Shown here piece after piece: positions 14,047-49,052 of a stretch of DNA of 64,000 nt (position 1 is the stretch's first letter; each line of letters starts with the position of its first letter). The notes under the pieces were generated by a model that saw only the letters and a program-made list of their open reading frames with translations, made no database searches and was not told the DNA's origin. The stretch lies in contig CP114125.1 in the NCBI GenBank assembly GCA_029959195.1, positions 1,426,001 through 1,490,000 of the forward strand. Reading direction: 5' to 3'. The DNA is from Dictyophora rubrovolvata (lineage: Eukaryota > Basidiomycota > Agaricomycetes > Phallales > Phallaceae). A program made the position numbers and the translations under genes.

Positions 14047-14742
14047 GGTCCTGAAGAAATATGAATAAAACATCGATTAATCAAGTAGAGCTTAACATGG
14101 GATTAGAACTTTGTATGATAATACGAGCACGTTATTTGCGTTAAAACGGACGACGTTGAACAAATGACGCGCCGGCCGCGCGCGCTCAGAAAAAAAGCTC
14201 AATCTTGCTGCTCGGAGTCAAATTTTATAAGGGCAGCGGACTTTCAGTCAGACTTAGTAGCGGCGTAGGACAGCTCTTAACCTACAAGTTCTCTCCGCGT
14301 TCTATGACCTGCAAGTTCTCTACACGGTTTATGACTTACAAGTTCTCTACACCTTCTTACAAATAAGTCCTTTACCATTTTTATATCGTCTCGTACTCAC
14401 CCTCTTGTTCCTTCTTCTCCAGTGGCTGACGAAGAAGTTTCACAAGAATTTCTTGACCTGTGCTTTGACCTCATGAGGAGATCTCATACTTCTTCTGCTC
14501 TCACTACGGGCCCCAAATCTGGCTTCATCTCTACAGATGACAGCATCACTACTTCAATCGAGGATGATGACGTTGATCCAGAGGCGACAATGTATTATCA
14601 CGGCTTGCCTTCAAGACCCACCTGGATCTTTCGTACGGGGCCACCATCAGAGAAGCTAACCGGCCCTGAGGCATACTCTATCAAGAGGGAGATCAGGCCA
14701 GTCTTCAATGACAAGCTCACAACCGTCTGGGAGGACTTGTGA
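14047..14742 (+). repeat. Arm 1 of an inverted segmental duplication
   Basis: The first 110 bases (ggtcctgaagaaatat onward) and the last 370 bases match the reverse complement of about 31775-32735. The middle, about 14165-14355, differs between arms. The shared part covers the last codons of the NIS synthetase at 32.7 kb, its 3' flank, an intron-bearing leader and the 5' end of the peptidase-like gene. Confidence 0.8.
14422..14742 (+). pseudogene. 5' fragment of a serine-peptidase-like gene
   Basis: About 106 codons (ADEEVSQEFLDLCFDLMRR ... KLTTVWEDL) closely match the N-terminal part of the gene on the minus strand at 30595-32110. The frame stops at 14740-14742, where that paralogue continues, and no peptidase domain follows. 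The leader intron's donor, GTAAGT in the other copy, reads ATAAGT here, so normal splicing of the leader is probably lost. It is a truncated duplicate. Confidence 0.75.
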
Positions 14743-17159: not shown

Positions 17160-20100
17160 ATGGAAAATGTCAATAGTGACAATCCATTTCAACTTCGGTT
17201 GAACCAGGTACGTTTGTTTTCCAGTGTTTAGAGTTAAATTGACTTGAAATCAGTTACGTGAAAACATACCACCACATCCAACCAAACGTCTTATACAAAG
17301 AGGGGGGGATATTATCGTAAGTAGGCCCCTTCATCATATTGCAAGATCACTTAGCTCAGTTTTAGGTGCCAATAAAAATGCTGCATTGCGATGAAGTACA
17401 AATAGCAGAGATTCAATCAATATACACTGAAAACCATCACTTTCATCGGGTTTTCAACTTGAGTGACATGTCGCAAAACGAAGCATGCGGTATTCTGGAG
17501 CAGCATGGACTGAAGGTGGATTGCTTGGATGATTTGGGGAATGGTTGGAGTGTTAGGTGGAGTAAGAAGAATAATGAAGGTTTGGGTCATATAAATCATA
17601 GCCGTCGAATTTTGTTACAATGGTAGGAAGAAACTACCAATAAAGTTTTTTGTTCAGAATAATCTTTTTTTTCTTCTCTAAGCCAACGGGGAACTAGTAC
17701 AACGGCCCGTCAATCCAAATTTAATAATCAACAAATGAAACACGGTAAACAGCCATCTGAGAAAGCATGGTCACGAAAAGCACCGTATGACTTCACTGGA
17801 TGCCTAGCGCATCTCGACATCACATTAAGCTTGAATGACCACATTATCCAACGAATTACTGGTATAACCAATCATAATTTGGCCTGCCAAGATGAAATTA
17901 TGAAACGATTGCCTGCCATACCTCTACACCCACACGTCTGGCAGATTGCTCTTGAACAATTAAATGCCGGCGCTTCGTAAGCTTTTTTACTTGTGAAATT
18001 TATTCTATGATATTAACATAAAAATAGTCTTACTGCAATTCAAGAGCGTAACTGTCAACTTCTTCGTGCAAAGATGTATCATGATCAGCATAATTATGAT
18101 CCGGCAACAGCGAATGTTCGGTACAATCTCCTCCCAAGCGATACATGTCGTCTTTACCGCAAGCAAGCAAATAATAATGGAGTAGACTTGCTTGAAAAAC
18201 CTGAGTATAACATTCATAACTGGCTAGATCCCGAAAGCAGTGAATATAATTGTGTCTTCGCAAACGTTGTCTTTGGATATCACGGTCGACAACACAAAGA
18301 TGAACGATTCCAAATCTGTCTACATACTCCAGAGATGCGAGAGGCAGCTTGGCGATATGCACATAACCACCAACTTCTTCTTGACGGAACATTTGGTATA
18401 TGTGACCGACGACTTCTACTTTTTATTGCAATGGCCATTGATGAAGACCGGAAAGGGTTACCAGTCGCCTTCTTTTTATTTTCAGCTCCCACCGGCAACC
18501 AGGCCACACATGCAGGCTATGATACAGAAATTCTCACTGAACTACTTCAAGCTTGGAAGATGTCATTAGGAAAACGAAGTGGTATCAGCTTCACTCCGAA
18601 AGTTGCAATTACCGACACTGACTTAAAAGAACGTGGAGCATTACTAGCTGTCTTCCCATCTATCTGCCTACTACTCTGTAAATTTCACTTGCGCCAGTGC
18701 TGGACGAATAAACGCAATGCTCTACTACCATGTAAGAAAACATTCAACTTCGACAAAATGCAAATACAAACTCGTTTAAGGGCACTCGAGGAAGCGTATG
18801 TTCAACATCATTATATCTCATTCTTGTAATCCTTGACTTTACATACATAGTTTAATTTCAACAACATCATATCAATCTGCTTCTACACTCATAGAAAATG
18901 AACGATCTGCTTTGAGTCTAATGTCAAAAGATGATGGTGCAAACCCTGCTGCCAACCAAGGTATTCAATTCCTCAATTACTTGGTATCTACTTGGATGCC
19001 GGAAGCTCTGTGGAAGAGCTGGTCTCGTTTTGGAAAAATTCGAGCATCCCAGCTGCTCAAAATTCCTATTGATGGCGTTATTCCGACAACTAATCACTTA
19101 GAAGCATTTAATGGCATTTTGAAGCGCAAGTATATACATGCAACAAAACGTGGAAACCAACGAGTCCGATTTGATCTTCTCATTTTTCTTCTGGCAACAC
19201 GTATTTTACCTGAGCTCTATAAGCAACGATCTGTCAAAAATAGCTATAATATCTGGCTTTCAAACCGTTTCAAAGAACAAGCGGGAGGTGCAATGTTAAT
19301 GCGATCCACAAGGCATCCCAAGGTTGCACCAGTGAATGAAGGTTCTGAAGACAAGTCTGGACCTGATGATGTTGGACCATTAGCATGGTGGAATGAGGCT
19401 CTTGAGTCTAAAATGCAAGAAGAAATCACTCAAATTATATCTCGAGGCCGGATAACTCTGTTGGGCTGGACGCAACCTCTGTTTACCCTCCTTGGAAGTT
19501 GCGCAAGTACACATGCAGATATTCGACAGCCTAATCACCCTCGGTATGAGGTTCGGATTAATTGCTATGGCTGGGCATCATGCACTTGTAATTATTTCAT
19601 TGACAAGAAGGGTGCGTGCAAGCACCTATGGGCCTTTCGAAAATTTCTCGCCAAATTTCAAATTCAATATCAAATCACATATCCACCAACTGCAGCGGAG
19701 GCTATAAAAGTTTTTTCAGCATTATCTCCATATTGTATATTTATCAGTTACTGTTTGATTATCATGCTAATTTAATTAACAAACAGATGACAATAAAACT
19801 ATCACCGAATTATCCAATCTCACCAATCAGAATAACAACTTGGAACAATCTGCACTTTTGCCACCACCAGTAATTGATCTGCTTGCTAAACTGAATGTCG
19901 AAGTTAGCACTATTCTTGCTGAAACAACTATTGCTGATGAAAAGAGGTCTGAGCATAATGATGATGAACCCAAGTCGAATGATGATGATGATATCAATGA
20001 TGAACAAGAAAATGATGACAACCTGGATTTAGAAGCTCTCCGCAGCCAAGGGTGTATTCGGTTGGAGCATGAATTACAACAGATATTGCCACGTTTACAT

Positions 20101-22589: not shown

Positions 22590-23486
22590 GAACAAGATTA
22601 AAAGGATATGTGGAAAATAATGGAGCGCGAAAAATCAGGAGGGACAGTAGGGATGCGATGGGGGATAAATTATGGAACGAGGGCGAAAGGGGTGAACAAT
22701 GGCCAAGTGCGAGCATGCCTTTTTATGTTTAGGATGTTTGTCACTATTTAGAAAAAGAGAACTCACCGTCTATAGGCCAAAATCTGCCAAAATCGAGCCA
22801 AAGAGTGACCATTATTGTGGCGGGAGGGGCGCAGTCGTGTGCGCGCGATGTGTTACCTCCAACACGGACACGAGGCGTGACTTCTGGAGACCCAAAAGAT
22901 TGGCCAACGCCGCGGGCGTTACAAAAAGCTTCTCCGGCTTCTGAACTTCTCGGCTTCTATTAAAGAAGCCGCAGAAGCTTCGGCTTATATAACGGCTTCT
23001 GATTAAGTAAACTCAGTGTTCCCGCTTAGCAGCCCATGCGGAGGAAGATATAGCGCCCATGCTAGCGTCTAAACTATTCTTGCGGATCCTTTCTGCAGCT
23101 GGAGGGATACACATACAGACTGAGGTTAGAAGTCTACAATCTTATGTTTTCTGAAGAGTCAAGGTTTGACAATTGACAGAAGATCTTCCGGTTGGGTCGC
23201 CTCAGTCATGTCCTTGATTACCGACGATAAAGGTCCATCGGAGCCATCGAATGTTTTGAAAAATGATAGAATATCATAGAAATTATAAGGAAACACGTAC
23301 GGTAAAATCACATACTCGGGGTAAAAAGACGATACGGAAGGAATCATAAAAACTGCGTGATTTTAGTGATATTCAAGTGGTGAGATACGCCAGGGGTAAT
23401 TATTCGACGTGAGAGCGCTTTTCTTGTCACCGAGTCATCACCGAGTCACAATTCAATACTCAATTTTTTAGCCCAAACTAGCGCCA
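22590..23486. other. Intergenic region with hairpin, upstream of SHMT
   Basis: Contains the GAAGC-rich inverted repeat at 22926-22980 (listed separately). A 62-codon minus-strand frame at 23162-23347 has sensible residues but no family match or partner exon, so it is not called. Confidence 0.45.
22926..22980. repeat. Inverted repeat (hairpin), 17-base arms
   Basis: The left arm at 22926-22942 (aagcttctccggcttct) pairs with the right arm at 22964-22980 with one mismatch, leaving a 21-base loop. Extra GGCTTCT copies lie inside the loop and just downstream. Confidence 0.8.
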
Positions 23487-25488
23487 ATGCAACGACTTTT
23501 GTCTTCCCACTTTGTTCGTTCTCTTTCATCTGTCTCACTTAGAAGGACAATGGCCACTGCTACGACTCAGAATTTCGTAAGAGGTTGTAATTATTTGAGA
23601 AACGAGGGTCTGACGATGCCTCAGAACAAGATTTTGTACACACCCTTGGCGGAAGCAGATCCCGAAGTACAGAACATCATTGACAAGGAGACATGGCGAC
23701 AGTATACTGGTCTGGAGCTAATTGCCTCGGAGGTATATATTCAGGAATTTTTCCCATTTCATGTATCTAACTGAAAAACCGTGAAAAGAACTTGACAAGC
23801 GTTGCAACTATGCAAGCTAATGGTTCGATCCTGACCAACAAGTACTCTGAAGGTCTCCCTGGAGCTCGTTATTATGGAGGAAACGAATATATTGATGAGC
23901 TTGAAATCCTTTGTCGTAAGCGTGCTCTTGAAGCTTTTGGCCTTGACGGAACAAAGTGGGGCGTCAACGTTCAACCGTACTCTGGAAGTGTGAGTTTTTC
24001 CGTCCGTTTTACTGTTTTGCCACGTGTAGGATACAGATTGCTTCTTCCTTAGACTGCCAAGTAGGTCCAATATTTGTTTGGATGTGCCTTTCGTTTAGTT
24101 CTTTCCCGCTAGTTTCGCCGCTCTCACGGCTTTGATTCAGCCGCAGGATCGCCTGATGGGTCTCGGTCTTCCTGATGGGGGTCATTTAACCCACGGATAC
24201 TATGCAAGTCTTTCGCGCACCACACTGGTTCTGTGTTTGTTTTAAATCGATGTCTTTTGTGTGTAGACGGCCAAGAAGAAGATGACAGCGTCATCGATAT
24301 ACTTCCAATCGTTGCCTTATGGATTGGATCCTAAGACTCAGCTTGTGGATTACGCTCACTTGACATCTCAAGCCCGTCTTTTCAAACCCAGACTGCTAAT
24401 TTGCGGTGCATCTGCCTATCCCAGAGACTGGGACTACCAAGCGCTAAGGAATATAGCCGATGAACATGGTGCATTCTTGATGGCAGATATCGCCCATACC
24501 AGCGGTCTTATCGCTGCCGGTGAACTCAACAACCCATTCGACTTTTGTGATGTTGTGACAACGACAACGTTAGTTTGCCAATTCCCTATGTGAATGTATT
24601 GGCTGACCCACTTCATAGGCACAAGACTTTGCGTGGACCTCGTGCTGGTTTAATTTTTTTTAAGAAAGAAGGGTCCCAGGCTGATGATTTGGAGAAGCGA
24701 GTTAATGATGCTGTCTTCCCTGCTTGCCAGGGAGGACCCCACAATAACGTCAGTTTTGCCCAGGATAGTCACCCATAACCCTGATCCCAATTGATTTCCA
24801 GACTATCGCGGCTGTAGCCACAACACTTAAACAGGTGGCCGATCCCAGTTTCAAAGCTTATGCTAAGCAAGTCATTGCAAATGCTAGGGCCCTTGCGGAG
24901 GAGCTAGTCAATTACGGATACAAACTCCAGACCAGTGGCACTGATAACCACTTGATCTTATGGGATCTTCGGCCCATGCGCTTGACTGGTAGCAAAGTTG
25001 AGAAGATCTGCGATCTTCTTCATATCACAATTAACAGTAAGCAAACGTTTTTCATAATACGGTGCCGCAGTTGGTCTAACGTAACATCCAGAAAACGCCG
25101 TATCTGGAGATGGTAAGCCTACTTACGGTTTGATCAACGTAACCGCGCGATAATGACAATTTTTTTTCTTCTTGAATTAGCTTCTGCGCAAGTTCCGGGT
25201 GGGATTCGTATTGGAACATCGGCTTTGACTTCACGAAATCTCACAGAAGCTGATATGAAAGTTGTCGCTGGCTTCTTACACCGTACCGTTCAGGTCTCTC
25301 TCACTCTTCAGAAAGAAGCCGGAAGCAAGCTTTTAAAAGATTTCTTGAAAGTTGCCACTGGCAACGGTGCGGGTGCCAAAGCTGTCAAGGAACTCAGACA
25401 GGAAGTCCGCGAGTTCGCAATGAAATGGCCACTCCCTGGCGCGGACATTGCAACCATCCAGAAGCCTGCTGGCATTATCGATGATTGA
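23487..25488 (+). CDS. Serine hydroxymethyltransferase
   Basis: Exons 23487-23732, 23789-23989, 24053-24060, 24113-24203, 24267-24568, 24619-24748, 24802-25036, 25092-25112 and 25181-25488 join in frame to about 513 residues, normal for eukaryotic SHMT. The enzyme moves the serine hydroxymethyl group to tetrahydrofolate, giving glycine and methylene-THF, with PLP. Visible motifs: [72 protein letters not shown], the PLP-lysine segment [28 protein letters not shown] and IGTSALTSR. Every core residue seems present. The first 21 residues ([20 protein letters not shown]) resemble a mitochondrial presequence, and Met22 offers a cytosolic start. Odd splicing includes an 8-base exon and a GC-AG intron at 24204. 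Confidence 0.96.
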
Positions 25489-30594: not shown

Positions 30595-32113
30595 CTATGC
30601 TGTGGTCGGGTGGAAATGGGCGTTAGGGAATTTGGCCTTAATACGCTCCCAAAGCCACTCGAAGGGGATTGCGTACGTGATATCAGTCGACTCCGTCTGG
30701 CCACTGGATCCACCAATAAGCAGGGCTGCGGCACGTCCCTGGTTGTCGACGATGAAGGAACCAGAGTCACCGCGGTGGGAGAATACTTCGAACTTCCTGT
30801 ACCCAAGAATGGCAAACTCCATCGACGTTTGCGGAGTGTCGTCTGGGAAGTAATCGCGCACGAATGATTTGATGCCGGTTCCACGGCCAATGGTAGTGTT
30901 CGTCGTGCGACCATTCTTGATCAGAAAGATATATGGCTCACCGGCTTTGTCGCGCATTCGTGGGTGGGCCAGCTCGTCTTCCGGGACGATGCCCTGAATC
31001 GGAAGGAGACGGTCGTCGGGATACTTGAAGGTGAAGGGGGCCGCTGGATCGGGGTAGATCGCTTGGTGGTGCTGGCACCAACAGTAATAGGAGGGGCGTA
31101 AAAGACGCGGCCAATGACACGGTGATTCTTTGGCTGACGTCGCTGTGGAATTTGTTGAGCTCCTTGATCGACGCCTTCAAATTGAACTCGGCCATCTCCC
31201 GCTGTGCCTCGACGCCGCGTGTCTTTCCACTCTCCTCCCTCATCTGCAGTCTGCCAAGCTGCTTCTGGTACTGGTCCACCATGACCGTGTTTCCAGCGAT
31301 CTTGACCATGACGGATGCTAGCATGCCTTCGAAGGCCTCGGGACCGGGGAGCACGACTTGAACAGGGCGCTGTCTGTTCTGTGTACGGTGATAGAGACTG
31401 TTCGGCACATCCTTGGGCGGGAATACAACATGCCGTGTTGTGAGAACATATACCGTCTCACTGTCACGGCCTGCGGAGAGGTAAAGACCTCCGGTGCCTC
31501 CAGTGTACGGAGTGGAGAGGGATGCGATGGGGAGACCGAGTGCCGGGGTGAGAGGACTGCGAACACAGGCGGCTGGGTCTCCAGTGGGGACGTAGTCGAG
31601 GAGCCTGAGGCCAGACCGCCTGAAGAGCGATTCCCGAAATGCTATCTCGACGCCGACGATCTGAAAGGAAAGGGGGATATCCTGGCAGGCCGCGACCTGG
31701 GCGAGCTTGCGGGATATAGACCCAGGCATCACACCGACCCACAGAACGATGGGACTCGTAGACAAGTGTGCCCATGTCCTCCCACACGGCGGCGAGCTTT
31801 TCGTCAAAGACTGGCCTGATTTCCCTCCTGACAAGGTACGTCTCAGGGCCAGTGAGCTTCTCCGATGGGGGTCCCGTACGAAAGACCAACGTTGGCCGCG
31901 AAGGCAAGCCGTGGTAATAGGTTGTCGCCTCTGGGTCGGCGTCGGCGTCCTCGACTGAAGTTGTGATGCTGTGATCTGTTGAGATGAAGCCGGACTTGGA
32001 AGCCGTAATGATGATGGATGATGTGGTGATGGTGGATGATGTAGGGGATTTAATCGCGATATTGAAGCATAGGTCAAGAAATTCTTGCGAAACTTCTTCG
32101 CCAGCCACTGGAG
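30595..32113 (-). pseudogene. Decayed trypsin-fold serine-peptidase-like gene
   Basis: The minus strand carries, in order: AGEEVSQEFLDLCFNIAI, LPSRPTLVFRTGPPSEKLTG and IRPVFDEKLAAVWEDMG; in a second frame GVMPGSISRKLAQ, VYVLTTRHVVFPPKD (a His-containing strand) and a helical linker; then NGRTTNTTIGRGTGIKSFVR and FSHRGDSGSFIVDNQGR with the GDSG nucleophile motif, ending AIPFEWLWERI. This is an agaricomycete family of peptidase-like proteins, often annotated only as hypothetical. The reading frame changes near 31,750 and again between about 31,130 and 31,030. At both places blocks expected for the family are missing, so it is not a working gene. The leader intron splits the first open ATG (A/TG). 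Confidence 0.7.
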
Positions 32114-32735
32114 AAGAAGGAACAAGGGGGTGAGTACGAGACGATATGAAAATGGTAAAAGACTTACTGAGGTTCAGCGGACATAGATCGGGCTAAAGAG
32201 TTTACTTCCTCAGTGTTAATGAACAACCGAGAAAAACTAATTCTAACGGAGACGAGCCATTTATATGAAAATTGAGAATGACGGAATTGGGACACTTCTT
32301 TCGTTTGTAAGCGTATTAGTAAGCTACACTTGTAGGAATGTGTAGAAAACTTGGGAATCATAGACCGTGTCGAGAAATTCTAAGCGATAGAACGCGTAGA
32401 GAATTTGAACCAAAACGTGAACTGTTCTACGCCAAGGCTGCAAAGTTTAGGCGTCCAACTGAGTTCGGCCAAATGTTCGCACGCCTGCCTTTCATGAGGG
32501 TTACATAATTCAGTAAGATTTTGATAGTGACTCGTGACGCGTGACGCGTGACGTAGGGCGGCTGTGCGTGCTATACTAGTATATGGACGCTGACCATCAT
32601 TTGTTCAATCATGTCGTCGTCCGTTTTAACGCAAATAACGTGCTCGTATCATACATACATAACAAAGTTCTAATCCCATGTTAAGCTCTGCCTGATTAAT
32701 TGATGCTTTATTTATATTTCTTCAGGACCCTTATA
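31775..32735 (-). repeat. Arm 2 of the inverted segmental duplication
   Basis: Reverse-complement partner of 14047-14742. It starts within the last codons of the NIS synthetase gene and runs through its 3' flank and the leader and first part of the peptidase-like pseudogene. Confidence 0.8.
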
Positions 32736-35230
32736 GTGTATCAAGTTAGGAAATGGCGCGTGCAGATGCTACAGAGTAATGTCAACTGCCACTGGATTGC
32801 TATACAAGAAAGAAGTAGACTTACAGTCCGATACATTCCTTGAAACCTCATTCTCATGAAACATTTTCCTTGTAATGTCTCCGTCTTTGGGTCTAACCAC
32901 AGCTTCCGTAACTCATGCCCTACAGGAATCTGCTTTTCTAAGACGCTCTTCACGATTGCCCATCCAATCCCGTTGTAATGGAGTTTAAGAACCCGTATAA
33001 GTTGCTGGAGGTGGTTGTGTATGAGAGTATGATATAAACGCGTGTACACGTCCTCAAGCGTGTCTGCGATGATCGAGTGGCCGGGAGCTATTACACCGTC
33101 AAGGGATTTGAGTGGTGTTGACTCTATCACGGAACGTTCATGGACTCTCAACCCTCCAAAATCTCGCACAACGAATCCTTTCAACTCCTTCGTTTCTATA
33201 TCAAACCGTGCCAGTACGTTCTGTGGATGTGCCTCAAATGCCACTCCATTGGCAATAACGGAAGGTAGAAAGGCCGCGAAGAATAACTCGACGAATCTAA
33301 TTGATATTTCGTCATGTCGACATCAAAACAATCACCGTTCCGTGATCGGAACATACCTATGCAGCCAAGCAACTCGCTTCTTTTCGTCATCAAGGCCGAA
33401 GATGATTTGCGCTAAAGGTGCCTCATCGCTACCACTATACCCTGTTTCGACAAGTGCAGTACAAACGATAGCTCGTTCATTACGCTTCGCTTCAGAAGTG
33501 TTTTCATAACATTCGCGGATGATACATCCTAGGTGTTTGGCTATTTCACCGTCCGGGTTGACTGAGGATACACTCGCCAACTCCTTTTGAACAATCATGA
33601 GAGACCTGTCATACTTAAGGTGTGGGACAACTTGGCTGGAGAATCGAGGTCCTAAGAATGCAGATGCGGGCGATATTGTTCGTACAGCAGAGGTTAAGCG
33701 TATGCCAAAAGCAAGCTTCAGGTGTGTATCTCGCAGTACTTCCGGAATGATTACTGAACTAACGCAAACAGTTAGCACACGGGACCATACATTGGTATCC
33801 CAATTCAAAAACTATACCGCAAACTTTGTTGTGCGTATGCAGTGAGCGAGTACTCCTCGGGAAGAATGCGTGCTTCGGGAAACTTCTTTACTATGTTCTC
33901 AATCTGGAGCTCATGGATGGGGATTAGAACCTCTTCTGGCGATTTATCCGGCGCTGTTCTTCCTGCTTTGCAGATTTCATTGAAAATGGGAGAGATATAA
34001 TTATCCCATGGGCCTTGAATGTTTAGCTTGTCTCGAAGAACTAGAATCATCCGTATACTGGGTTCTTGCCAGTTGAATTCTCCCGGTAAAAGCGGAGGAA
34101 TCGGAGGAAGTGTACGACGCATCTTATGCATCTGCTAAATTGGTAGGAATCGAGGCGGAAAATAACGGGAAAAAAGGGACTGACAGGATGGGTGGGATGG
34201 CCTTCGATGATGCATTGCTCCCAAACAATACTCGGTGATTCCCATGTTGGCATAAGAGGAGGATTCTCATATGCGTATTCTAGAAGTAATAATGTCAGGT
34301 ATCTGACGTTGACCCCTAATGAAACCCTGGTGGGTCATTAACGCACGTTGCCATTCCATCGAGTTCAGAAGCTCTTCAGCCACGTCCATTTCGAGATTTT
34401 TTCCCATTCCGTAGTGCTCTGCGTACTTTTTCCAAAGGTGCAATGGACCGGGACACGAAACAAGTTCGAAGCTGAAGATGCCAAATTCGCTGATCGCGGT
34501 CTGTACTGCCCCTTCTATGTCGCAGAACTCCTGGAAAGATCATCAGAAGCCAGAACTGTTTTTTTTTAATCAGAGGAATATTGTGGAAGTGATGCCGACG
34601 AAATTCCATGTTTTTTCCCTTCGACCACCATAGGCTGCCATTATGAGAAGCGAGAACGCCGCTTCTCCATGAGCTCTATTCGCGGCATCTGCCACGTCAA
34701 GGATAATATCAAGTTTTTGATTTGAGTCATATGCAAATGCAACCCTAGACTTCCTCAATCAAATTTAGTCTGTGCTCCACCCCAGACATCCATCTCCAAG
34801 CCGTCATCGCGTCATCCTTATCCATCGAATTGGCTTCTTTGCGAATATGTAGTCTCACCTTTGGAAACCCATTAGGTGTTGGATGGCTGTCATTTTCTGG
34901 CATCTTCAGTTCATAAACATATGGTAACATATCCAGTGGATCGAGAAGATTGATGATATTACGCTCCTTCAGGAAGGGTATATGGCGTAGTGGGATCACA
35001 GCGAATACCTCTTCCGTTCGAAATGGCCCGGGGCCCATTGATAGACCGACAGCATCGGAATTTAGAACGATCGCGATCCCTTTCAAATTCTTGGTTTTGG
35101 AATTAGATGCTACGAAGAACGCTTTCAAGAGTGATTCTGTAACGAGGCATGACAATAGGCGTGCCGCGGCTGCGAAAGATGCGCGTTTGGATGGCTCCAG
35201 ACATGACGCAGACAACGCAAACATGCTCAT
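32712..35230 (-). CDS. NIS siderophore synthetase, IucA/IucC family (copy A)
   Basis: Eight exons join in frame on the minus strand: 35230-34788, 34744-34600, 34530-34347, 34279-34185, 34134-33818, 33758-33357, 33296-32825 and 32768-32712, about 704 residues. Family landmarks: RLLSCLVTESLLKAFF, IIEGHPTHP followed by MHKMRR (the ATP/substrate HPxHP-K motif), IPIHELQIENI (HxxQ; bacteria usually have HPWQ), a basic VETGYSG segment, VAFEAHPQNVLARFD, and VVRDFGGLRVH. The family joins citrate or similar acids to amines or alcohols through acyl-adenylates, without NRPS. No signal or membrane segment is seen, so it is cytosolic. An inserted block (residues about 148-196) is absent from copy B. Divergent from copy B over a shared 1,036-base promoter with iron-GATA boxes. 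Confidence 0.9.
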
Positions 35231-35571
35231 GCTCGAGGTCTTTGAGGGAAGAGGAATCGATAAATCTCGAAGGATTACGACAGATTACGTCCTAGGGCAA
35301 GCTCTTTATACAATAACGACATCCATTCGCTTTATCCAAGATCAACAACAACGGAATCGTGGTCCGTGTTAATTAGGTCCTGTACCGGCTATCAGTCCGC
35401 GCGATGCGTTTCCATAACCAAAAAAAAAAACACCTTGACCAACGGAATCTCGTGAGAGACGAGTTTCTAATACCTCGAAGATGGTTCTAATTTCTACCAT
35501 GTAAAATGCCCCATTTTTTCGGCAACAACAACCCGTGGAATTTTGCCGCGCGTAATCAAAACTCCGACTTT

Positions 35572-35580
35572 ATCAGATAA
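35572..35580 (+). promoter_or_regulatory. Iron-GATA box ATCAGATAA
   Basis: Perfect match to ATCWGATAA, the site of fungal iron-sensing GATA repressors (Urbs1, SreA, Fep1 type). It lies about 342 bases upstream of the copy A start and 687 upstream of copy B. Confidence 0.7.
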
Positions 35581-35601
35581 AAAAACATTGATAGGCGTTC
35601 C

Positions 35602-35610
35602 TTATCTGAT
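35602..35610 (-). promoter_or_regulatory. Iron-GATA box ATCAGATAA (minus strand)
   Basis: Second perfect ATCWGATAA site, inverted, 22 bases after the first. Close inverted pairs suit dimeric or double-finger binding. Confidence 0.7.
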
Positions 35611-35698
35611 TAAATCGTGATAGGAAATGGGTTCCTTCGCTAAAAATTTTCTTGAGTCGATGTGCCACAATATCCTTTCACATCGGATCCGTCGTCCT

Positions 35699-35707
35699 TT
35701 ATCTGAG
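35699..35707 (-). promoter_or_regulatory. Iron-GATA-like box CTCAGATAA
   Basis: One mismatch at the first position from ATCWGATAA. Same orientation as the second site. Confidence 0.45.
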
Positions 35708-36266
35708 CCTTAGAACTGGGTTCATGGGAGAAACGTCAAGGAAAGCCCTAGCGTTGCATTTACGAAATTACTTGCGAGATTTAGGAATATAGGCGAGTTT
35801 CTGTCTTATTTCTTATAACTGGTATTTCCCAGCACTAACTGCAATAGATACTAGGTCGTTTTTTATTTACGGAATGGTTGTGGTCCCCGAGCGCCTTTTT
35901 ATCTCTTAGTCACAATCTTAATTTTCAGGATATCGTCATCTCGGGATCTGATTTTCCTCCAGAATCCTGCAAGGTTTTCCGACAGTGCCTCGATAATTTT
36001 GGACTCATTATTACATTCCAAACAAATCGAATTGCTTTTAAACACGTCTAAACTTCATATTGGCTCATCATTTGACTGCGCAATCATTGTGGGAGTAAAC
36101 CTAAGACGAGGGTTAAATTGTCCACATTCTTCTCAATCAACTCATTTATTGTCGCTTGTATGTCATTTTTCCTGTCGGCTATCTTTTTTTTTTCAGCCAT
36201 ATAAATATGTTTCTCTAGGACCGGTTTAGCCTTACTACCCACCCCACTTACAAGTCAAACTTCCCC

Positions 36267-38480
36267 ATGCAAACATTACGCTCTTTGTCTCTCGCAGACC
36301 GCGCAGCATTTGCGGTTTCTTCTCGACTTCTATCATGTTTAGTAACCGAATCTCTGCTCAAAGCAATTTTTATCCCCGTTGATCCTAGCTCGAGCTTGTC
36401 TGGGACATGTGGAACTTGTGTCATTCTATCGAACAAGGCAAATATATCGAATGTCCCTGTAGGACGACCGTATCATCCGTCGGATGTCTTGCTGCTTGTT
36501 TCGTTGCGGTTCCCCCCTATTCTCAAGAAGCCAGTTGACGATGCAGCGGCAGCAGAAGTCGGCCTGGTGGATCCATCAGATATGCTTCCATGGATATTTG
36601 AGATTCGGGAAGACCATAATCCACGTCAAGCCGATGCTTCTTCAATGGCTAGTGCCTTCTTATCCCATTTACTTTCTCCTAAAAACTCATTGCTCAATAG
36701 GCAGCCCACTTGACCCAGTGCTTTCCAGCAGAGTTCTGTGATGTTACACGATATACTATCTCTTCTTTATCTTTGGATCCCATATACATATGGAACAAGT
36801 TCTGCGCTGATATCCAATTTAACGATGACAGTATGATTAGTATTACTAAGGAGCTGAAAAGCTCCATGGAGTGGCAAAGTATTATATTCCAAGTATTTCG
36901 TATTGAGAACCACCGCTCATTGATGGCATCTTTACAGAGATAGCATATGAAGAACGAATAGCTCGACCAACTCTTGCATCTTCAGAATTGGAATGGGAAA
37001 AAGCCCTTGTTGAGGGACATTCAACGCATCCCGTAAGGAATATATTACATCAAGCCCGGCTCGGACATCTCTATAACTACAACTCATCATCATATTGCAG
37101 ATGCATCGAGCGCGTCGAACAATCTTTCCACTACCGGTTATAATACCCGGTCAATACGATTATTATAAGCCTAACGTTCGTTTTGCTTGGATACCGCGTG
37201 AACGCCTTCTAATACAGGGAGAATTCGAGGCACTGCTACGATCCCTCCGGGATTCCGCCGAGAAGAACGCTGGTCATCCATTAGAGGATGTTCCGGATCA
37301 TGTGCTGTTTCCTCTTCATGAACTGCAAATCCCAAATATTGAGTCGAGGTTTCCCGATGCGGTTATACTGCCGGAAGAGTACTTTGTGGCAACTGTGGCC
37401 CAAGCGAGCATACGGTGCGGAAGTCGTTTTTTTGAACTATGAACTTGGACTAATACAAAATTAGCACGCTAATACTGGCTTGTTCGGAAAATCTGGCCCT
37501 CAAAACCGCTGTCGGTGTCAAGATATCTTCTGCTCTTCGCACCATCTCGCACTTTACGGCATACTTCGCACCCAAATTTGGTCGGGATATTCTCCCACGA
37601 CTATCCATTGATCCAAATATTTTGGTTATCGAAAAAGAAATAGCCAGTGCGGTTTATAATCATGAAGACCCAGAAATTGCCAAACATTGCACAGCTATGC
37701 TGAGACGTACCTACAATGGGAAAGAAAGTGGGGAAAAGGTTATTCCTGCGGCTGTTTTGATAGAATCCGCGTACCAGGACATGGAAGATGGTGTCCCGGT
37801 GGTTGTTACAGCTTTGGGTTTGGATGATGAGTCGAAGAAATATGCTTTTTTGGAATGGTATGAACTCATTTGAGCTAACACAGTCCTTTTCCCTTACTAA
37901 AGTTCTTTTCTGAAATAGCTACGTCAACCTCATCTTTGACGCTTTTATACCTCCTCTCTTGATAAATTGCGTTGCATTTGAGGCACACGGACAAAATACT
38001 TTGGCACGGTTTGACCAACAAACAGGAGAACTCAAAGGTTTCGTTTTTCGAGATTTCGGAGGTTTTCGCATTCATCCGCCCACCTTATATGATTCCACTG
38101 GTATAGTGATTGACACTTTACCCGGTCACTGTGTCTTGGTAAATGACGTGGAGGATGCTTATCGGAGAAGTTACCACACGTTGATACATTGTCATGTCCA
38201 ACGTTTAATCCGTGTTCTCGGGTTTCATCAGGATGGGAGAGGATGGGCTCTTGTGAGAGATGCATTGTCCGCTCGAATTCCTCGCGGTACACGATTGTGG
38301 GAGTCTTGGTTGAACCCTGAGAGACAGGTGGTTATGGGGAAGTCACTGCTGAGAATGAAGATGGAAGGAGTGTATCGCGATGTAGGTTTCTTGCTCACTT
38401 GACTTATTAGGTTGAAACTGATGTTTTTTATAAAGGCAGTGTATGAACAAGTTCCTAATCTTATTCATTTTCGTGGCTAA
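36267..38480 (+). CDS. NIS siderophore synthetase, IucA/IucC family (copy B)
   Basis: Seven exons join in frame: 36267-36651, 36729-36878, 36938-37032, 37101-37414, 37465-37857, 37919-38385 and 38440-38480, about 614 residues, close to bacterial IucA/IucC length. Landmarks parallel copy A: RLLSCLVTESLLKAIF, LVEGHSTHP then MHRARR, FPLHELQIPNI, LPEEYFVATVAQASIR, VAFEAHGQNTLARFD, FVFRDFGGFRIH and the ending PNLIHFRG. Most shared intron positions match copy A, so the pair arose by gene duplication within a fungal lineage. The two differ enough (for example EGHPTHP versus EGHSTHP) that they may use different substrates. Expected to be cytosolic and, from the shared promoter, induced when iron is scarce. 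Confidence 0.9.
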
Positions 38481-38856
38481 GTATCTTGTTTGAGAAAAAC
38501 CCTTATGTAACGTATAGGGAGATCGTTTACCCCCATGACTTTAATTATTCCATCCATTGCATAATATGGAACTTTTATTTCCGCAACTTCCTGTTCGTGA
38601 TCTCCGGTTGGTATTTCAAATGAACTGGGAACGACAGATTGTACCTTTTAAAAATCCAAAATTTATATCACCGTGCTTCGATCGAAATTTGAAGAAGTTT
38701 TTATTTTTAGTTTATCTTGGTTGCAGACGCTGCATACAAACAGTGAGCCGCTAGCCCCAATTGCCGAATTTGAACCATTCATTGGGCTGCACCTTTCTCT
38801 CGACCGCTGGCTCTATAACCCAGAGACGTTATAACCATTTCACCTCAATAAATAGA
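38481..38856. other. Intergenic stretch, no gene seen
   Basis: AT-rich flank. The last 80 bases resemble the sequence before the second GMC gene, marking the start of the tandem duplicate unit. Confidence 0.5.
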
Positions 38857-41800
38857 ATGACAATGACAAAGCGCGCAAATGTTGAAGATATTGCGAATAG
38901 ACAGTTCGACTATATCAGTAGGAAGAACTGCTCCATCACTGCCATCCCACCGTTATCAGTAGCTGATTAGAGCGGTATGTAGGGGGTGGTGTAAGTGCCG
39001 TGTCGATAGTTGCTTTAATTATGATTATGAGCTGACAGACGACGGGATCAACTCTTGCCGCTCGTTTGAGCGAAAATCCTGACATCCTAGTCCTCGAGGC
39101 AGGCAAGTTGCATGTCAGTGATCCCCTCATCGGTATGTTTTTAACATGGTAATGAAATGAGGACACTATAACTGCTGACAGACACGCCTACAGGATGTTT
39201 TGAGCAGTTGGGAAATGCCGATTATGACTGGGTCTTCCGGGCAGTAAGCCTTCTCCGGTGTCGATTTTTTGTTGAGATATTCAATGTCATTTAGACACCC
39301 CAAAAAAGGCTCGGAGGGAAAACTTTGATATGGAACAGGTTTGAGAAATAGACCATTATGTGATTTTGTATTTCACCATCACTACATAGGGGCAAAGGTC
39401 TTGGAGGAAGTTCAAACATCAATTATATGGCATGGACACGACCTGGGAAAGATGAGATTGATGGTATAAAACCCCTCAAATAAAAACACTTTTTTAACAA
39501 CTTCTTAGCTTGGGGAATCCGGGATAGACGTACGATAAGTTTATCCCATACATCAGGAGGGCTGAAAGGCGATTGAAAGAGATACATGTACATCGTATCG
39601 TGATTCTTACTGTTGAACTATCTCACAGCTTCCATTTTCCGTCCCAAGACATTGTTGAACGCGAGTCTTTAGTCGTTGAGCCCTCCCGGCATGGCAAAGA
39701 AGGTATTTGCAAACAATACTATGTTGCGAATCGATCAGATTGTTTTTACCGTCTGTCAGGGCCTATCTCTGTATCTTTTTCCGACAGGCCCTCTGATCCT
39801 GAACCAATTATCAGAGCCGTATGCACTCGACAGCCTTCCATACAATCAGGAAGACTTAACAATCTTAATCTAGACTCTCAATAACGCTGGTATTCCCAGT
39901 GTAACGGATCCGTGAATAGAAGCGCAATTTACAGAAGAAGATTTCTTGAATTAAATCATGACATAACAGGTTAACGGGAAATACTCCGGAACCTGGTGTT
40001 CTCCTGCGTCAGTCAATCCAGTCACACTAGCTCGATCAACTGCATTTACGGTATATTTCAGTCATCTTGTACTCTTTTAGAATGCCGTTGATTATCATAG
40101 GGCTATCTTCAACCAAGTATGGGACGACCAAATCTAAGTGTTTTAGTGGAGACCTACGTCACCAGACTGTTACTTGATGGCAACTCGACCGAACCTGTTT
40201 CGGCCAAGGGAGTAGAATTCAAGTACGGAGATAATGTATATGTGGCTTACGCTAATCAAGAAGCACTCCTATGCGCCGGGTCAGTTCATGAGTCTTCCCC
40301 TCGATTGACCTATTGATCCTTTAACTGGCAGTGCTCTCAAATCTCCCCAGATTCTTGAGCTGAGCGGTATTGGAGATCCAGAAATTCTCACACCTCTTGG
40401 AATTGATGTCAAAGTCAATCTTCCTGGAGTCGGGGCTAATCTCCAGGAACATTTCGCTAACTTCGGTATTGCATTTGGAAGTATATGCTCGAACAAATTC
40501 TTTCCATTCAAATAAAATTGTTCTACAATTTTAGAATTCAAACCCGCATTCAAACCCTCGATGTGTTGTCAGATCCCATAGAATCCAAAAGTACCACTGG
40601 CACGAGCTTTAGTCAGTAAATGTGCCTTTCATGAAATTATTTCGTTAGCCTAATCGTACCCAGTCAACAAAAGCGACGTGGACTTCTTTCATTCACAGTC
40701 TCCGGACTAACATTTGCCTCACTACAAGCAATATCCCCTCAAGCTGACATGATCATCACCCGATTGGAGGAAAGGCTAGCTAGCAATGAACTTATATTTT
40801 TCCCTGGAATCCGAGAGCAATACAAGATTCAACTTAAAAGATTGAAAGGCCCAAAGATGCCGGATGGCGAGATTATCATCAACCCTATGTTCAATGGATT
40901 CATTAGTTCGTGATATCAATAATGGGATTTTTTCCAATTCTCTAACGACTCTTCTGTAGATCAAGCCGAACCGGGCAAACGCTATGTCTCCTTCCTATGT
41001 ATCACGGTGACACCCTGGTCTCGTGGGACTGCTGTATGCACAACTGTCTTTTGTTTCGGAGAACTTTTTTTCCCTAAATGACTTCCTTCAAGCACATCAC
41101 CTCCAAGGATCCATTTATCAATGATGCCTTAGATGGCAACCTTTTGGCTGAGGAAATCGACCTCGATATCATCGTGGAATTATTCAAGTTTACTCGATCT
41201 TTGGGTTCGTTTGAACCTTAAATATAGAGCACATTTGCCAAAATCTAAGCACCGTGTGGCGTATGTGACTCATGATGTCAAGTTGCTTTCGCAAGTATCT
41301 TACGAGACCCATTTCCAGATACATCGAGCACCTTGTCAATGCTCCCGAGAGAAAATGGTGATGTCGTTGATCCCACTCTCAAGGTATGTCGACATCATGT
41401 CCAACCTAACTGACGTTCTCATGGATAAATAGGTCTGGGGCACATTCGTGTGTGTGATATTTCTATCATTCCCTTGCAGATTGGGGTACACACGCAATGT
41501 ATATAGTTACTATAAATAGGGGATGTCAGAGTAGGTCGTTTCAAGGCCGTTTCACTGTCCGTTTCGGTTCCAGTGAAACGGCTGGTGAAACGGCGAAACG
41601 AGTGAACTGAGCGAAACGGCAGCCGTTTTGCTGTCCGTTTCACCCATCGGCCGTTCTCGGTCAGGGATGAATTTTTAAAGACAATTTCTAGAAATATTTC
41701 TTTAATAAATCATATAAAATTTTTTTGAGCAACTGTACAACATAGGTGAAACAGCGCACGAAACGGTCATCGAAACGGATGGGCAGCGGGGGTGTTCAGA

Positions 41801-41973
41801 GTTAAAACGGGATAAGTGGTATTCCCGAGATATTCCCGACATCTCGAAACGGGCAACGAAACGGACAGCGAAACGGCCTTGAAACGGCCTACTCTGACAT
41901 CCCCTAATGGCTGATGACATTAACTGGCACGACCATAATAGGTATTGCCTATGGTATAGCGGAAAAGGGTTAG
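38857..41973 (+). pseudogene. Decayed GMC oxidoreductase (tandem copy 1)
   Basis: Aligns along its length with the gene at 42301-45162, with the same exon order. Recognisable parts: VEDIANRQFDYI, the STLAARLSENPDI segment, GLGGSSNINYMAW (GMC signature 1), [33 protein letters not shown] (signature 2) and ending AYGIAEKG. The Gly-rich FAD loop is damaged at the first exon end (YIIIG of copy 2 is not kept). About ten bases are missing in the exon near 39,510, shifting the frame, and roughly 95 bases are missing near 41,220. A MITE sits in the last intron. It is therefore not expected to make an active oxidase. Confidence 0.8.
41519..41904. mobile_element. MITE with about 50-base terminal inverted repeats
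   Basis: The left end (ggggatgtcagagtagg...) and the right end (...cctactctgacatcccc) are inverted copies over about 45-50 bases with few mismatches. GAAACGG/CCGTTTC units recur many times inside both ends, like subterminal transposase-binding repeats. There is no coding capacity. TAA flanks it at 41513-41515 and 41905-41907, suggesting a 3-base target duplication as in PIF/Harbinger elements. The matching intron of the second GMC gene lacks the element. Confidence 0.85.
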
Positions 41974-42300
41974 TAAACCAACTATCTTGGAATACTTCGT
42001 TCGTTTACACTGTTCCAGCTGCAGATATGATCCTGAGCCGTGTTTGACCCACCTTTCCCGCCGGTGTAAATGATAACCAATTTATTTCGTTTTATTATTT
42101 GCTATCTGAGAAATGTATTGAAAAGTGGTGCTGATGTCCCACCCCACCGTCGTCCCACCCTGCATCGGTTTCATCAGCCCGAATAGATTAACTCGCTGAT
42201 CAGTGAACTAGCAATCACCGTGCTTAGGCTGCCCCTTTCTCTCGAACACTCTTTAGTCCAGGGAAAATATCACTATTTCGCCTCAATAAACGGAGTAACA

Positions 42301-45162
<2,862 letters not shown>

Positions 45163-45633: not shown

Positions 45634-47698
45634 TTAAGAGCTCGCCCTTGGAGTAATAACATAATCGAATTTTTCAGGAAGACTAAACAAGAGTGATTAT
45701 CTGATTTTTTGTCGAAGACTAAACCAAGAAGTGACTTACGCTACTAAACCTTCCTGGAAATTCGGAGGTGGAATAACAGGTTTACCGTCTTTAATGACAG
45801 GTTTGATGTCATACGTAGCAATAAGGGTCGCACTTGCTAGCCATTGCATAGCTTGTGCGAGATATACACCTGGGCAACGCCTGCAGCAGAAGTGAAATGA
45901 AAGTTCATGTTTGACTCGTAGTTTTTGAGTTAGTTACCTGATACCAAATCCGAATAGATAATCACGCGGATCCTTTGCTTTGTGCTCTGCCGAGAGGAAG
46001 CGGTCTGGGTTGAATTCCTCGGGGTTGGGATACATTTCTTTGTTGTGTAAGAAGCACCTAAAAAACAAAGGGCTACGATAAACGGCGGTTGGTAGGATAA
46101 AATAAGCTTCGAAATGTACCATGTGTTCGGAATAACAATTGAACCCTTCGGAATGAGATAATTATTATGAACATCGTCTTCTGTGGGGACGTGTTGCAAA
46201 CCTATTAATTAATGTAACATTCAACGCGAAGGATGGAGATTTTGTAGAATGGAACGCATACCGGTTTGACCTATTGGATACACACGATGTATCTCCATGC
46301 ACAGGGCTTCAAGGTAGGGCAACTTGAAACGATCGGCTAAAGTCGGTAAACGGTCTCTTCCAACCACGAAATCGATTTCAGCTTGAGCTTTTTGCAATTC
46401 GGCGGCGTGTCTGACAATTCCGAGTATAAAGTTGGACAGTCCTGCCCCCGTCTAATAATGTATAGGGATTTGTGAGTATACTGTCGTCCCGACAAAATGC
46501 GAATGAATTGTTTACCGTAAGGGCCCCGCCTAAGAAGTTTGTTAGCTGTGCACACATAAGAGTAAAAGTAATACGTACCGGCGTGAATACCAGCTGCAGA
46601 CCATTGTATGATTCTCTCTTTTTCGGGTGTCAGATCTTTTTCTTCCTTTAGAATGTCTGTAACGAAACAAGAAGTGCCAGCAGATTCCGATTTCTAAAAA
46701 AAAGACGTTTATGGGAAACACATTACCAAAATTATGAAAAACAAATACCATTTGTTCTTTTGTCCATTCATATGGACGTTGAAGCATTTTATCTACCTCT
46801 TCACGATACTTCACCGCCTTTGTTTTCCAACCAGCACCGGGGAACCATTTTGGGACATAACGGACTGAACAGAAGATGCTCAACGAGCAATTTTGACGAA
46901 GAAGTATTACTTACGTGCAGGAAAAAGGTCAACAGCAAAGGCCCCGCTTTCGGTCATTTCGGAGAACCCGTGCATAGCATTGTTAACGACCGTCACGAAA
47001 GGATCGTTCTCATCGACAACTGTATAGCCATACACAAGCCTTAAAAAAACAGCACCAGCATATCTATTTGGAACTTTCAGCTTCCGAAACTCAACCGTGA
47101 AATGCGTCCTACTCACGACTGAAATAGGTCGATGTGGTTTTCCGGTGCTTTGACAAGGCGATCTAAAAGGGTCTTGACTTCCTCTTTCAGAATGGGCTCA
47201 TACTCTTCGACTTGTGTAGGGGTGCCCATAAATCCTCCAAAGTGTTTGCGATGAGTCGCCCAGGCTTCGTTGGCTTCAATCAGGACTGGGCTTTTATCCC
47301 ACCCAACCATTTCACCAGCCATTATAAGAGTTGGTCGACGGCTGTACAGTTTTCCTTTGAGGTCGAGCATTTCATACGCGTATTTTGGGTCGTTAAGAAT
47401 GACCAAGTGAAGTCCTACAACATTAATGTGTACAATTGGGCCTAAAAGGACGAGTTAGTCGAGGTGGCTCATGACTTTGTACACTCAAAGAACCATATAT
47501 CTTCGCCCACTCTGCAAATTTCTCATACGCTCGCGTCTTGGGCATGTCTCTAGCATTTCCGATTATAGGTAATGGCTTAGGGCCCGGAGGCAACGAAGGC
47601 TGTTTCTTGAACATGGGGAAGCAGGAGGAAGCGTCGATATCGATATCGGGGATGTCCTGGACAGTGAAAAGGGTTAAGATCGGGGAAGATGAGTTCAT
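45634..47698 (-). CDS. Cytochrome P450 monooxygenase
   Basis: Start ATG 47698, stop at 45634-45636; about twelve exons join in frame to roughly 500 residues. The proline hinge [14 protein letters not shown] opens the catalytic part. Later come the C-helix [22 protein letters not shown], the I-helix AGIHAGGALTTG, the K-helix ExxR (MEIHRVYP), the PERF-like FNPDRFL, and the heme loop FGFGIRRCPG with the Cys ligand. The architecture matches the O-methylsterigmatocystin-oxidoreductase-like P450s common in agaricomycetes. Two oddities: the acid usually found before the I-helix Thr (AGxDT) is Leu here, and no hydrophobic N-terminal anchor precedes the hinge ([19 protein letters not shown] is not a convincing membrane span). 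An upstream anchor exon may have been missed. Confidence 0.9.
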
Positions 47699-49052
47699 AG
47701 CCTTTTTAAACGATTTAAACCTAGTGAGCTTATGCGCCGCGGATCAAAGTTTGACTCAGTTTGTTACCTCATGCCCGCTCGGGGTTTTAGAAGTTGCACT
47801 CTATTTTACGGCAATGGTCACTGCTTGCCCGAATGGCATTTTAATGACAGCTGCGGGCTCGTGCCTTTCGGATTCGTTCTTCAGCGGAACGGTCTTTATT
47901 CGCTAAACATACGCAAAAAGAACCAAGCTGAAACAAAGGAAGGTTGGGTACTTTCAAGGTACTTTGGTTTGTTGGGTGACAAAGGGAACAAATACCTCAT
48001 AACGCTGTACTTGTGTAAAATAAACACCACCAAGATGGATACATTACTCGGCATAAACTCGCCGAAGGTCTCAGATATCATGCGGAGTGTTGAGGCCAAG
48101 GCGATGTCGCGGAGCAAGCACCCCGAGCGAAAGCTGACTAAGACAGAAGCGCCCAAACCGTGTTGTCCTCATTTAAACATCAAAGGCGAGGTTTCATAGT
48201 CCCGTATTCGCACCCACGGATGACACTGCAGAAGGCCCAAAACCCGAGGCTCGTTTGGGTCCAACTTCGTATTAAAATAGACCGTGACGGGTTCACGAGT
48301 TTATTCAAGTCGCTACTTAAGGCTCCTGTTCATTGAAGTCGTATGCGTGTATTTGTCCTTGGAGCTTTTGGTTATAAAAAGTGCACGCAACATTGTGCAG
48401 AATGATATGCGAACCAGCTGGCGTCACTGATGGGACAGCGGATAAAAGATGCGTAGGATGGAAAGGCCAAAAACTTGATTGAGAGAGAGCGTTCTAAGGT
48501 ATTTGCTTTACTTTGTGTTTTCCCTAAGCATGACGTCGTTTAAAATTTGCCACAGGTTAAGCCTTGGATTGGATTGGAAAATTGTTCTGAATTGGGGGGA
48601 ATTGTCGTCAATGACTTCATACGTCTACTCTTTCAAGAGGACCGCGATGAGCGTACAAACTTCGAGATAGAATTTCTTCTTGACACCAGTGGCAGGACTA
48701 GGTCTTTTCGAAAAGCGTGATACTATCTCGTCCATACGTCATGGCTCAGGTAGCTGCGAACATAGTACTTTATCAACTGGCTTAAAGATTCACTTAGCAA
48801 TCGTACTCGTTATTTGCCAGTTTATTACAGCTATTAATACTATAAATGTCCAAAACACAATTCCGGGGCTAATAAACTTAGTCCGTACGTATCAGTAGTC
48901 CTTTTTTGTAGAGCTTCGTGCGGCCAGTCTAAAAGAGCAATACTTCGTACGTTTTTTCTGGGGAAACCGAAATCTTCGCATTCATTGCGATCCATTTGAA
49001 TATTCACTTACAACAAATAACTCTGATCGAATGTGCACGCAAATACCAATGC
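47699..49052. other. Intergenic region, no gene supported
   Basis: Open frames of 100-155 codons at 47538-48199 run partly antisense to the P450 and lack family features. A short stretch near 48128-48146 (gagcgaaagctgactaag) recurs at about 58057-58075. Confidence 0.4.

What the first reader, a model, noticed from the sequence alone, without database searches (positions are those of the whole stretch)
32712..38480. Divergent pair of intron-rich IucA/IucC (NIS) siderophore synthetases in a basidiomycete
Seen: two full-length frames with EGH(P/S)THP, HELQ, VAFEAHxQN and RDFGG motifs, mostly shared intron positions, and divergent orientation. Known: NIS synthetases are chiefly bacterial. In fungi the characterised example is a rhizoferrin synthetase of Mucoromycota, and basidiomycete siderophores studied so far are mainly NRPS hydroxamates. 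Many bacterial NIS pathways use two paralogues in consecutive condensations. Inference: this locus could make a carboxylate or mixed siderophore not yet described for mushrooms. The HELQ variant of the bacterial HPWQ motif may mark a fungal subgroup.
Basis: partly seen in the sequence, partly recalled or inferred. Interest (0 to 1): 0.88.

Follow-up and report, generated by a model that had tools for sequence, protein, structure and literature searches.

The report
Paired mushroom siderophore-synthetase genes
Two neighbouring fungal genes that face away from each other encode enzymes of a family known mainly from bacteria that build iron-scavenging molecules; the pair is real and probably iron-controlled, but similar pairs have already been reported in cultivated mushrooms.

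Summary
NIS-M (minus strand, 35230→32712, 631 aa) and NIS-P (plus strand, 36267→38480, 622 aa) are open across seven exons each and divergent. Both pass Pfam cut-offs for IucA_IucC and FhuF. They are 41% identical, share 5 of 6 introns in position and phase and are sisters (100/100) against 55 bacterial and archaeal NIS rows. Each keeps 19 of 24 columns invariant in nine bacterial homologues, including the main active-site motifs. The NCBIfam model both match best is FslA (rhizoferrin), far below its cut-off. New here: the shared 1,036-bp upstream region holds two SreA-type iron GATA sites 32 bp apart (about 1e-4 by simulation).

The implied novelty does not hold. NIS synthetases are published for Armillaria and relatives (PMC10700112), two-core NIS loci for Agaricus bisporus and Pleurotus ostreatus (PMC11942895), adjacent pairs for Coprinopsis and Hypholoma (PMC8874372). 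I saw no product assigned to such a pair. Best reading: a member of a known mushroom locus type, probably making a citrate-based siderophore under iron limitation. HELQ occurs in 0 of 148 bacterial or archaeal rows; whether it marks fungi could not be tested.

The parts
32712..35230 (-). NIS-M: IucA/IucC-FhuF NIS synthetase gene, 7 exons (35230-34859, 34530-34347, 34279-34185, 34131-33818, 33758-33357, 33296-32825, 32768-32712 including stop), 631 aa
   Evidence: gene model; Pfam; introns
34531..34858 (-). first intron of NIS-M, 328 nt if single; a reading with two introns and a small exon cannot be excluded
   Evidence: one search lists the open alternatives; one search shows FPKEFCD and FPAEFCD aligned across the junction
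36267..38480 (+). NIS-P: IucA/IucC-FhuF NIS synthetase gene, 7 exons (36267-36651, 36705-36878, 36938-37032, 37101-37414, 37465-37857, 37919-38381, 38436-38480 including stop), 622 aa
   Evidence: gene model; Pfam; introns
35231..36266 (.). shared divergent upstream region, 1,036 bp, 41% G+C
35570..35580 (.). palindromic iron-GATA site TTATCAGATAA (ATCWGATAA on both strands)
35602..35610 (-). second iron-GATA site, ATCAGATAA on the minus strand

Best explanation
The locus is a pair of paralogous NRPS-independent siderophore (NIS) synthetases in a fungus, most likely an agaricomycete mushroom. They most simply arose by duplication of a gene that already had its introns. Shown by sequence: family, open frames, most conserved residues, shared introns, sister relationship, iron-type GATA sites in the shared upstream region. 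Inferred: each enzyme adenylates a carboxylate, most likely citrate, with ATP and passes it to an amine. The two act on the same or successive condensations, as SfaB and SfaD do in staphyloferrin A (recalled), giving a citrate-based iron chelator. A SreA-type GATA factor represses both genes together when iron is plentiful.
For: PF04183 and PF06276 above cut-off in both. Of 24 columns invariant in nine bacterial homologues each window protein keeps 19, among them G-H of the GHP motif, H of HPWQ/HELQ, S-x-R, K, R of SxxRT, E-x-H-x-Q-N and D of RDxxG (alignment). Solved-structure match AsbB, E 1.2e-6 for NIS-M alone and 9.5e-13 with the two-protein profile. Best NCBIfam match FslA (rhizoferrin) for both, 4.7e-9 and 1.1e-12. 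The top rows of the genome-contig scan are staphylococcal, and 19 of the 20 Staphylococcus loci returned carry two NIS frames in divergent orientation. Two independent ATCWGATAA sites lie in the shared upstream region; two or more arose in a fraction of 0.0001 of 20,000 simulations. The same consensus is given for SreA in PMC10500206 (passage) and reported in the Mucor rfs promoter in PMC9226013 (passage).
Against: No product, expression or iron response is shown. Both proteins depart from bacterial consensus at some near-universal columns: E (148 of 149 rows) is F in NIS-M and Y in NIS-P; NIS-P also has C for a G and S for a T that are invariant in 147 of 147 rows. The FslA match is far below its cut-off of 1000 bits (35 and 47 bits). 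The tree does not resolve where the pair attaches, its stem is long (1.95), and the program warns of long branches meeting and of odd letter make-up in many rows. No transporter or amine-supplying gene was recognised in the 20 frames scanned of 103 frames of 100 aa or more. In Armillaria, siderophore activity in culture did not fall with added iron (PMC10700112, section read). In C. cinerea, which has an adjacent NIS pair, the NRPS product coprinoferrin is described as necessary for extracellular iron acquisition (PMC8874372, passage), so the pair does not replace it. The GATA consensus comes from Aspergillus and was chosen after the region was seen; plain WGATAA is not enriched in the window (101 against 90.9 expected), and of the CCAAT/HapX-like strings tried only one ATTGG and one ATCGTGAT turned up.
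Confidence: 0.57

Rival explanations
1. Only NIS-M is the working synthetase; NIS-P is a redundant or drifting copy whose substrate range has changed or whose activity is fading.
For: NIS-P has the longer branch (0.77 against 0.47), the weaker PF04183 score (68.6 against 95.2 bits), GHS in place of GHP, and C and S at two columns that read G and T in 147 of 147 other rows.
Against: NIS-P keeps an open frame across seven exons and 19 of 24 bacterial invariant columns, the same number as NIS-M. The third position of GHP also varies in bacteria (GHR, GHN, GHT). Two-core loci recur in other mushrooms (PMC11942895, PMC8874372), which suggests that both copies are kept.
Confidence: 0.23
2. The two enzymes are amide or ester ligases for a metabolite that is not an iron carrier.
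For: No iron-uptake gene was recognised beside the pair in the frames scanned. The chemistry is generic acyl adenylation; AcsD accepts several amines and alcohols (PMC3323832, passages).
Against: Iron-type GATA sites in the shared upstream region; the closest family models are siderophore synthetases.
Confidence: 0.15
3. The gene models are artefacts or the genes are decayed.
For: No RNA evidence; the first intron of NIS-M has several open readings.
Against: Twelve GT-AG introns give two full-length homologous frames with 41% identity, and 5 of 6 introns agree in position and phase between the paralogues.
Confidence: 0.03

Closest known systems
Two-core NI-siderophore clusters of Agaricus bisporus and Pleurotus ostreatus (PMC11942895; passages read)
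   Same: two NIS core genes in one cluster in an agaric
   Different: orientation, introns and promoter sites are not in the passages I saw; not compared by sequence. The paper gives the number of A. bisporus strains as four in one sentence and five in another
Adjacent IucA/IucC core genes of Coprinopsis cinerea and Hypholoma sublateritium; split homologues in Stropharia rugosoannulata (PMC8874372; section 3.6 and passages read)
   Same: two IucA/IucC genes side by side; the S. rugosoannulata homologues carry PF04183 and PF06276 and are expressed in mycelium
NIS clusters 1 and 2 of Armillaria and other Physalacriaceae (PMC10700112; abstract, parts 1-3 of 8 and sections 18, 19, 20, 25 part 1 and 32 read)
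   Same: PF04183 plus PF06276 proteins; cluster 1 genes have 6-10 exons, the window genes 7 each
   Different: there the two synthetases lie in separate clusters; ABC transporters, C2/MRP-like and Frag/DRAM genes of cluster 1 were not recognised here
Rfs, rhizoferrin synthetase of Rhizopus delemar (recalled; described in PMC10700112)
   Same: fungal NIS synthetase, type A' by that paper
SfaB/SfaD of staphyloferrin A (names recalled; layout seen)
   Same: two NIS synthetases transcribed divergently
   Different: bacterial, intron-free, a third frame of 392 aa lies between in L011; similarity only about 22-27% in the tblastn rows

Membership tests
NIS synthetase family (IucA/IucC) | PF04183 domain above curated cut-off | tested here: met
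   68.6 and 95.2 bits against a cut-off of 25
NIS synthetase family (IucA/IucC) | C-terminal PF06276 (FhuF-like) domain | tested here: met
   46.8 and 48.9 bits against 25.2
NIS synthetase family (IucA/IucC) | conserved ATP- and carboxylate-binding residues | tested here: met
   each keeps 19 of 24 columns invariant in nine bacterial rows, with the GH, H, SxR, K, R, ExHxQN and D positions; five departures each. Assignment of E442 and R305 of AcsD (PMC3323832, passages) to the EAHxQN and SxxRT motifs is by recall and spacing
NIS synthetase family (IucA/IucC) | ATP-dependent condensation of a carboxylate with an amine or alcohol | not testable with these tools
   needs purified enzyme
Type A' NIS (citrate plus amine) | groups with FslA, SfaB/SfaD, LbtA, Rfs | tested here: inconclusive
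   best NCBIfam match is FslA but far below cut-off; attachment point unresolved in the tree; no Rfs sequence available
FslA (NCBIfam NF041038) | score above curated cut-off of 1000 bits | tested here: not met
   35.1 and 47.1 bits
Agaricales two-core NI-siderophore locus | two adjacent IucA/IucC core genes | tested here: met
   criterion from PMC8874372 and PMC11942895
Agaricales two-core NI-siderophore locus | orthology with the published pairs | not testable with these tools
   no fungal sequence collection is held
Physalacriaceae NIS cluster 1 | neighbouring ABC transporters, C2/MRP-like and Frag/DRAM genes | tested here: inconclusive
   not recognised among the 20 frames scanned of 103 listed; a P450 lies about 7-9 kb downstream of NIS-P

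The most novel reading that the evidence does not exclude
The pair is a two-enzyme pathway run from one iron-repressed bidirectional promoter, in which NIS-M and NIS-P carry out successive condensations to a citrate-type siderophore not yet described from mushrooms, a fungal parallel to staphyloferrin A rather than to one-enzyme rhizoferrin.
Probability: 0.28. Interest if true: 0.6.

Novelty: new member of a known kind. Interest (0 to 1): 0.35.

Why it matters
Most Basidiomycota species are said to make hydroxamate siderophores (PMC10500206, passage), so a carboxylate pathway would add a second iron-uptake chemistry. Paired NIS genes have been reported in several mushrooms, but in what I read nobody says what they make. 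The iron-type GATA sites in the shared upstream region and the conserved motifs of both copies make a direct test (deletion and metabolite analysis) straightforward.

Tried and rejected
Whole-genome search of the window's own assembly: none is held. The first genome-contig scan, with only the two window proteins, gave no relative; it was repeated with bacterial homologues added. A first model of NIS-P with the start one base off and the acceptor at 36699 gave internal stops; the model with ATG 36267 and the acceptor at 36703 is open. Bacterial-type promoter and terminator scan of the shared upstream region: no promoter-like site and two stem-loops, not relevant to a fungus. Rfam and tRNA scans of the window: nothing. 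Ganoderma adspersum siderophore paper: no NIS, Iuc or rhizoferrin in the text search. Search for rhizoferrin with basidiomycete and carboxylate: 7 papers listed, seen as a listing only, except PMC10500206, of which passages were seen. Structure prediction was not tried because spliced proteins are not a letter-for-letter translation of window DNA, which that tool requires. One paper search of ten was left unused.

Limits of the comparisons. The tree used 57 rows: the two window proteins and 55 of 149 hits, from 34 chosen loci. Of 149 hits, 148 are distinct; L070 and L003 are the same plasmid. In one search, 23 of 171 aligned rows had gaps at HELQ and were set aside; 171 rows come from 149 proteins because some split into pieces. 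NIS-P was not searched alone against solved structures.

For that reason the best explanation went from 0.60 to 0.57, the NIS-P rival from 0.20 to 0.23 and the novel case from 0.30 to 0.28.
Full report
WHAT IS THERE. Two genes face away from each other around 1,036 bp of shared upstream DNA. NIS-M (minus strand) runs from ATG 35230 to its stop at 32712, and NIS-P (plus strand) from ATG 36267 to its stop at 38480. Each has seven exons; spliced, they give 631 and 622 aa. All 12 introns used are GT-AG; 11 are 50-68 nt long and one is 328 nt. The 328-nt first intron of NIS-M is the junction in most doubt: many two-intron readings and some other single introns stay open too, but this one joins FPK to EFCD, which lines up with FPAEFCD in NIS-P.

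FAMILY. Both proteins pass Pfam's cut-offs for IucA_IucC and for FhuF. Of 24 columns invariant in nine bacterial NIS proteins, each window protein keeps 19. Kept in both are GH of the GHP motif, H of HPWQ, SxR, K, R of SxxRT, ExHxQN and D. Departures shared by both include F or Y for a nearly universal E (148 of 149 rows in the larger set) and L for the W of HPWQ; NIS-P alone has C and S at two columns that are G and T in 147 of 147 rows. The only NIS protein among the solved-structure matches is AsbB (for NIS-M, for the profile). In NCBIfam both are closest to FslA, the rhizoferrin model, but far under its cut-off, so they are not FslA by that rule.

PARALOGY. The two are 41% identical over 601 aligned residues. 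Five of six introns agree in column and phase; the first differs. In a tree of 57 rows the pair is a clade with 100/100 support. Its attachment to the bacterial and archaeal groups is unresolved and its stem is long (1.95); the program warns of long branches meeting and of odd letter make-up in many rows. The simplest reading is duplication after the introns were gained. NIS-P is the faster copy (0.77 against 0.47).

BACTERIAL PARALLEL. The first rows of the genome-contig scan are staphylococcal. In 19 of the 20 Staphylococcus loci returned, two NIS frames lie in divergent orientation; the twentieth (L039) shows one. In L011 a frame of 392 aa lies between. I take this from recall to be the staphyloferrin A locus; the gene names come from no call. 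In plasmids, 82 records matched NIS-M, none over 80% of its length; the 40 rows listed lie at 22-26% identity.

IRON CONTROL. The SreA consensus ATCWGATAA (PMC10500206, passage) occurs five times in the window, against 1.89 expected; 3 of 100 shuffles reached five. Merged across strands these are four sites, and two of the four lie 32 bp apart in the shared upstream region (35570-35580 and 35602-35610). In 20,000 first-order simulations of that region, two or more sites arose in a fraction of 0.0001 and two within 40 bp in 0.00005. The motif is the known fungal iron element but was tested after the region had been read, so the figure is somewhat generous. Plain WGATAA is not enriched in the window (101 against 90.9), and CCAAT/HapX-like strings gave only one ATTGG and one ATCGTGAT. 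The same review passage says SreA is conserved in Basidiomycota. A matching element was reported in the Mucor rfs promoter (PMC9226013, passage). Against simple iron repression: in Armillaria, siderophore activity in culture did not fall with added iron, which its authors put down to different siderophores (PMC10700112).

HELQ. At the HPWQ position both window proteins read HELQ. Of 148 bacterial or archaeal rows with letters there, 131 read HPWQ and none HELQ. Whether HELQ marks fungi was not testable: no fungal sequences are held.

NEIGHBOURS. Downstream of NIS-P lie two tandem copies of a gene that reads like a GMC oxidoreductase (by eye; direct repeats 3.44 kb apart), then a cytochrome P450. 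Beyond NIS-M lies a gene with no confident Pfam match. No transporter was recognised in the 20 frames scanned of 103 listed. The pair is therefore not shown to be part of a larger cluster.

WHAT IS ALREADY KNOWN. PMC10700112 (abstract, parts 1-3 of 8 and five sections wholly or in part) describes two NIS clusters in Armillaria and other Physalacriaceae, assigns them to type A', and names Rfs as the first characterised fungal NIS synthetase. PMC12973365 (passages) finds both clusters in an African Armillaria with putative expression of some genes of its siderophore clusters. PMC8874372 (section 3.6 and passages) says the two core genes are adjacent in the majority of fungi, naming Hypholoma sublateritium and Coprinopsis cinerea. 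PMC11942895 (passages) finds two core NI-siderophore genes in clusters of Agaricus bisporus and Pleurotus ostreatus, and single ones in Lentinula edodes. PMC11574748 (passages) lists an NI-siderophore region in Hohenbuehelia grisea. PMC10989895 (passages) reports NI-siderophore clusters in Cladobotryum, an ascomycete genus, with unknown product. In the parts of these texts that I read, and in the listings, I saw no product assigned to a basidiomycete NIS gene. That is a statement about those searches only; most papers in the listings were not opened.

VERDICT. The finding is real and well described, but it is a new member of a known kind. The function is most likely citrate-type siderophore synthesis under iron limitation; the product and the division of labour are unproven.

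Noticed in passing
window 38782-39063 and 42224-42500: Direct repeats about 3.44 kb apart (81-93% identical) mark tandem copies of a gene that reads by eye like a GMC oxidoreductase.
   Followed up: partly
window 41517-41906: Inverted repeats of 58 nt, 91% complementary, 274 nt apart, resembling a small MITE-like element between the two GMC-like copies.
   Followed up: no
window about 45700-47740, minus strand: A cytochrome P450 gene in several exons; one frame matches PF00067 at 5.5e-8.
   Followed up: partly
window 18017-18826, plus strand (open frame continues at 18837-19772): MULE-type transposase frame (PF10551, 1.9e-8); the following frame had no Pfam match.
   Followed up: no
window 12013-12981, plus strand, perhaps from 9448: End of a fungal-type protein kinase (PF17667, 2.7e-6), a family I recall as expanded in mushrooms; the frame at 9448-10077 had no Pfam match.
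   Followed up: no
window 14335-14739 (plus) and 31467-32192 (minus): Two frames with nearly the same protein start (SFTIFISSRTHPLVPSSPVA.EEVSQEFLDLCF), so a second, shorter copy of part of the gene next to NIS-M lies 17 kb away; the longer frame had no Pfam match.
   Followed up: no
window 23472-25485, plus strand: Serine hydroxymethyltransferase exons (PF00464, 7.9e-25 on the frame 24769-25113; the rest by eye).
   Followed up: no
L020:1198-5374 and L023:2035-5215: Divergent NIS pairs also occur in a Brevibacillus (184 bp between the frames) and in Streptomyces genomes (frames as called overlap in L023), so the arrangement recurs in bacteria.
   Followed up: partly
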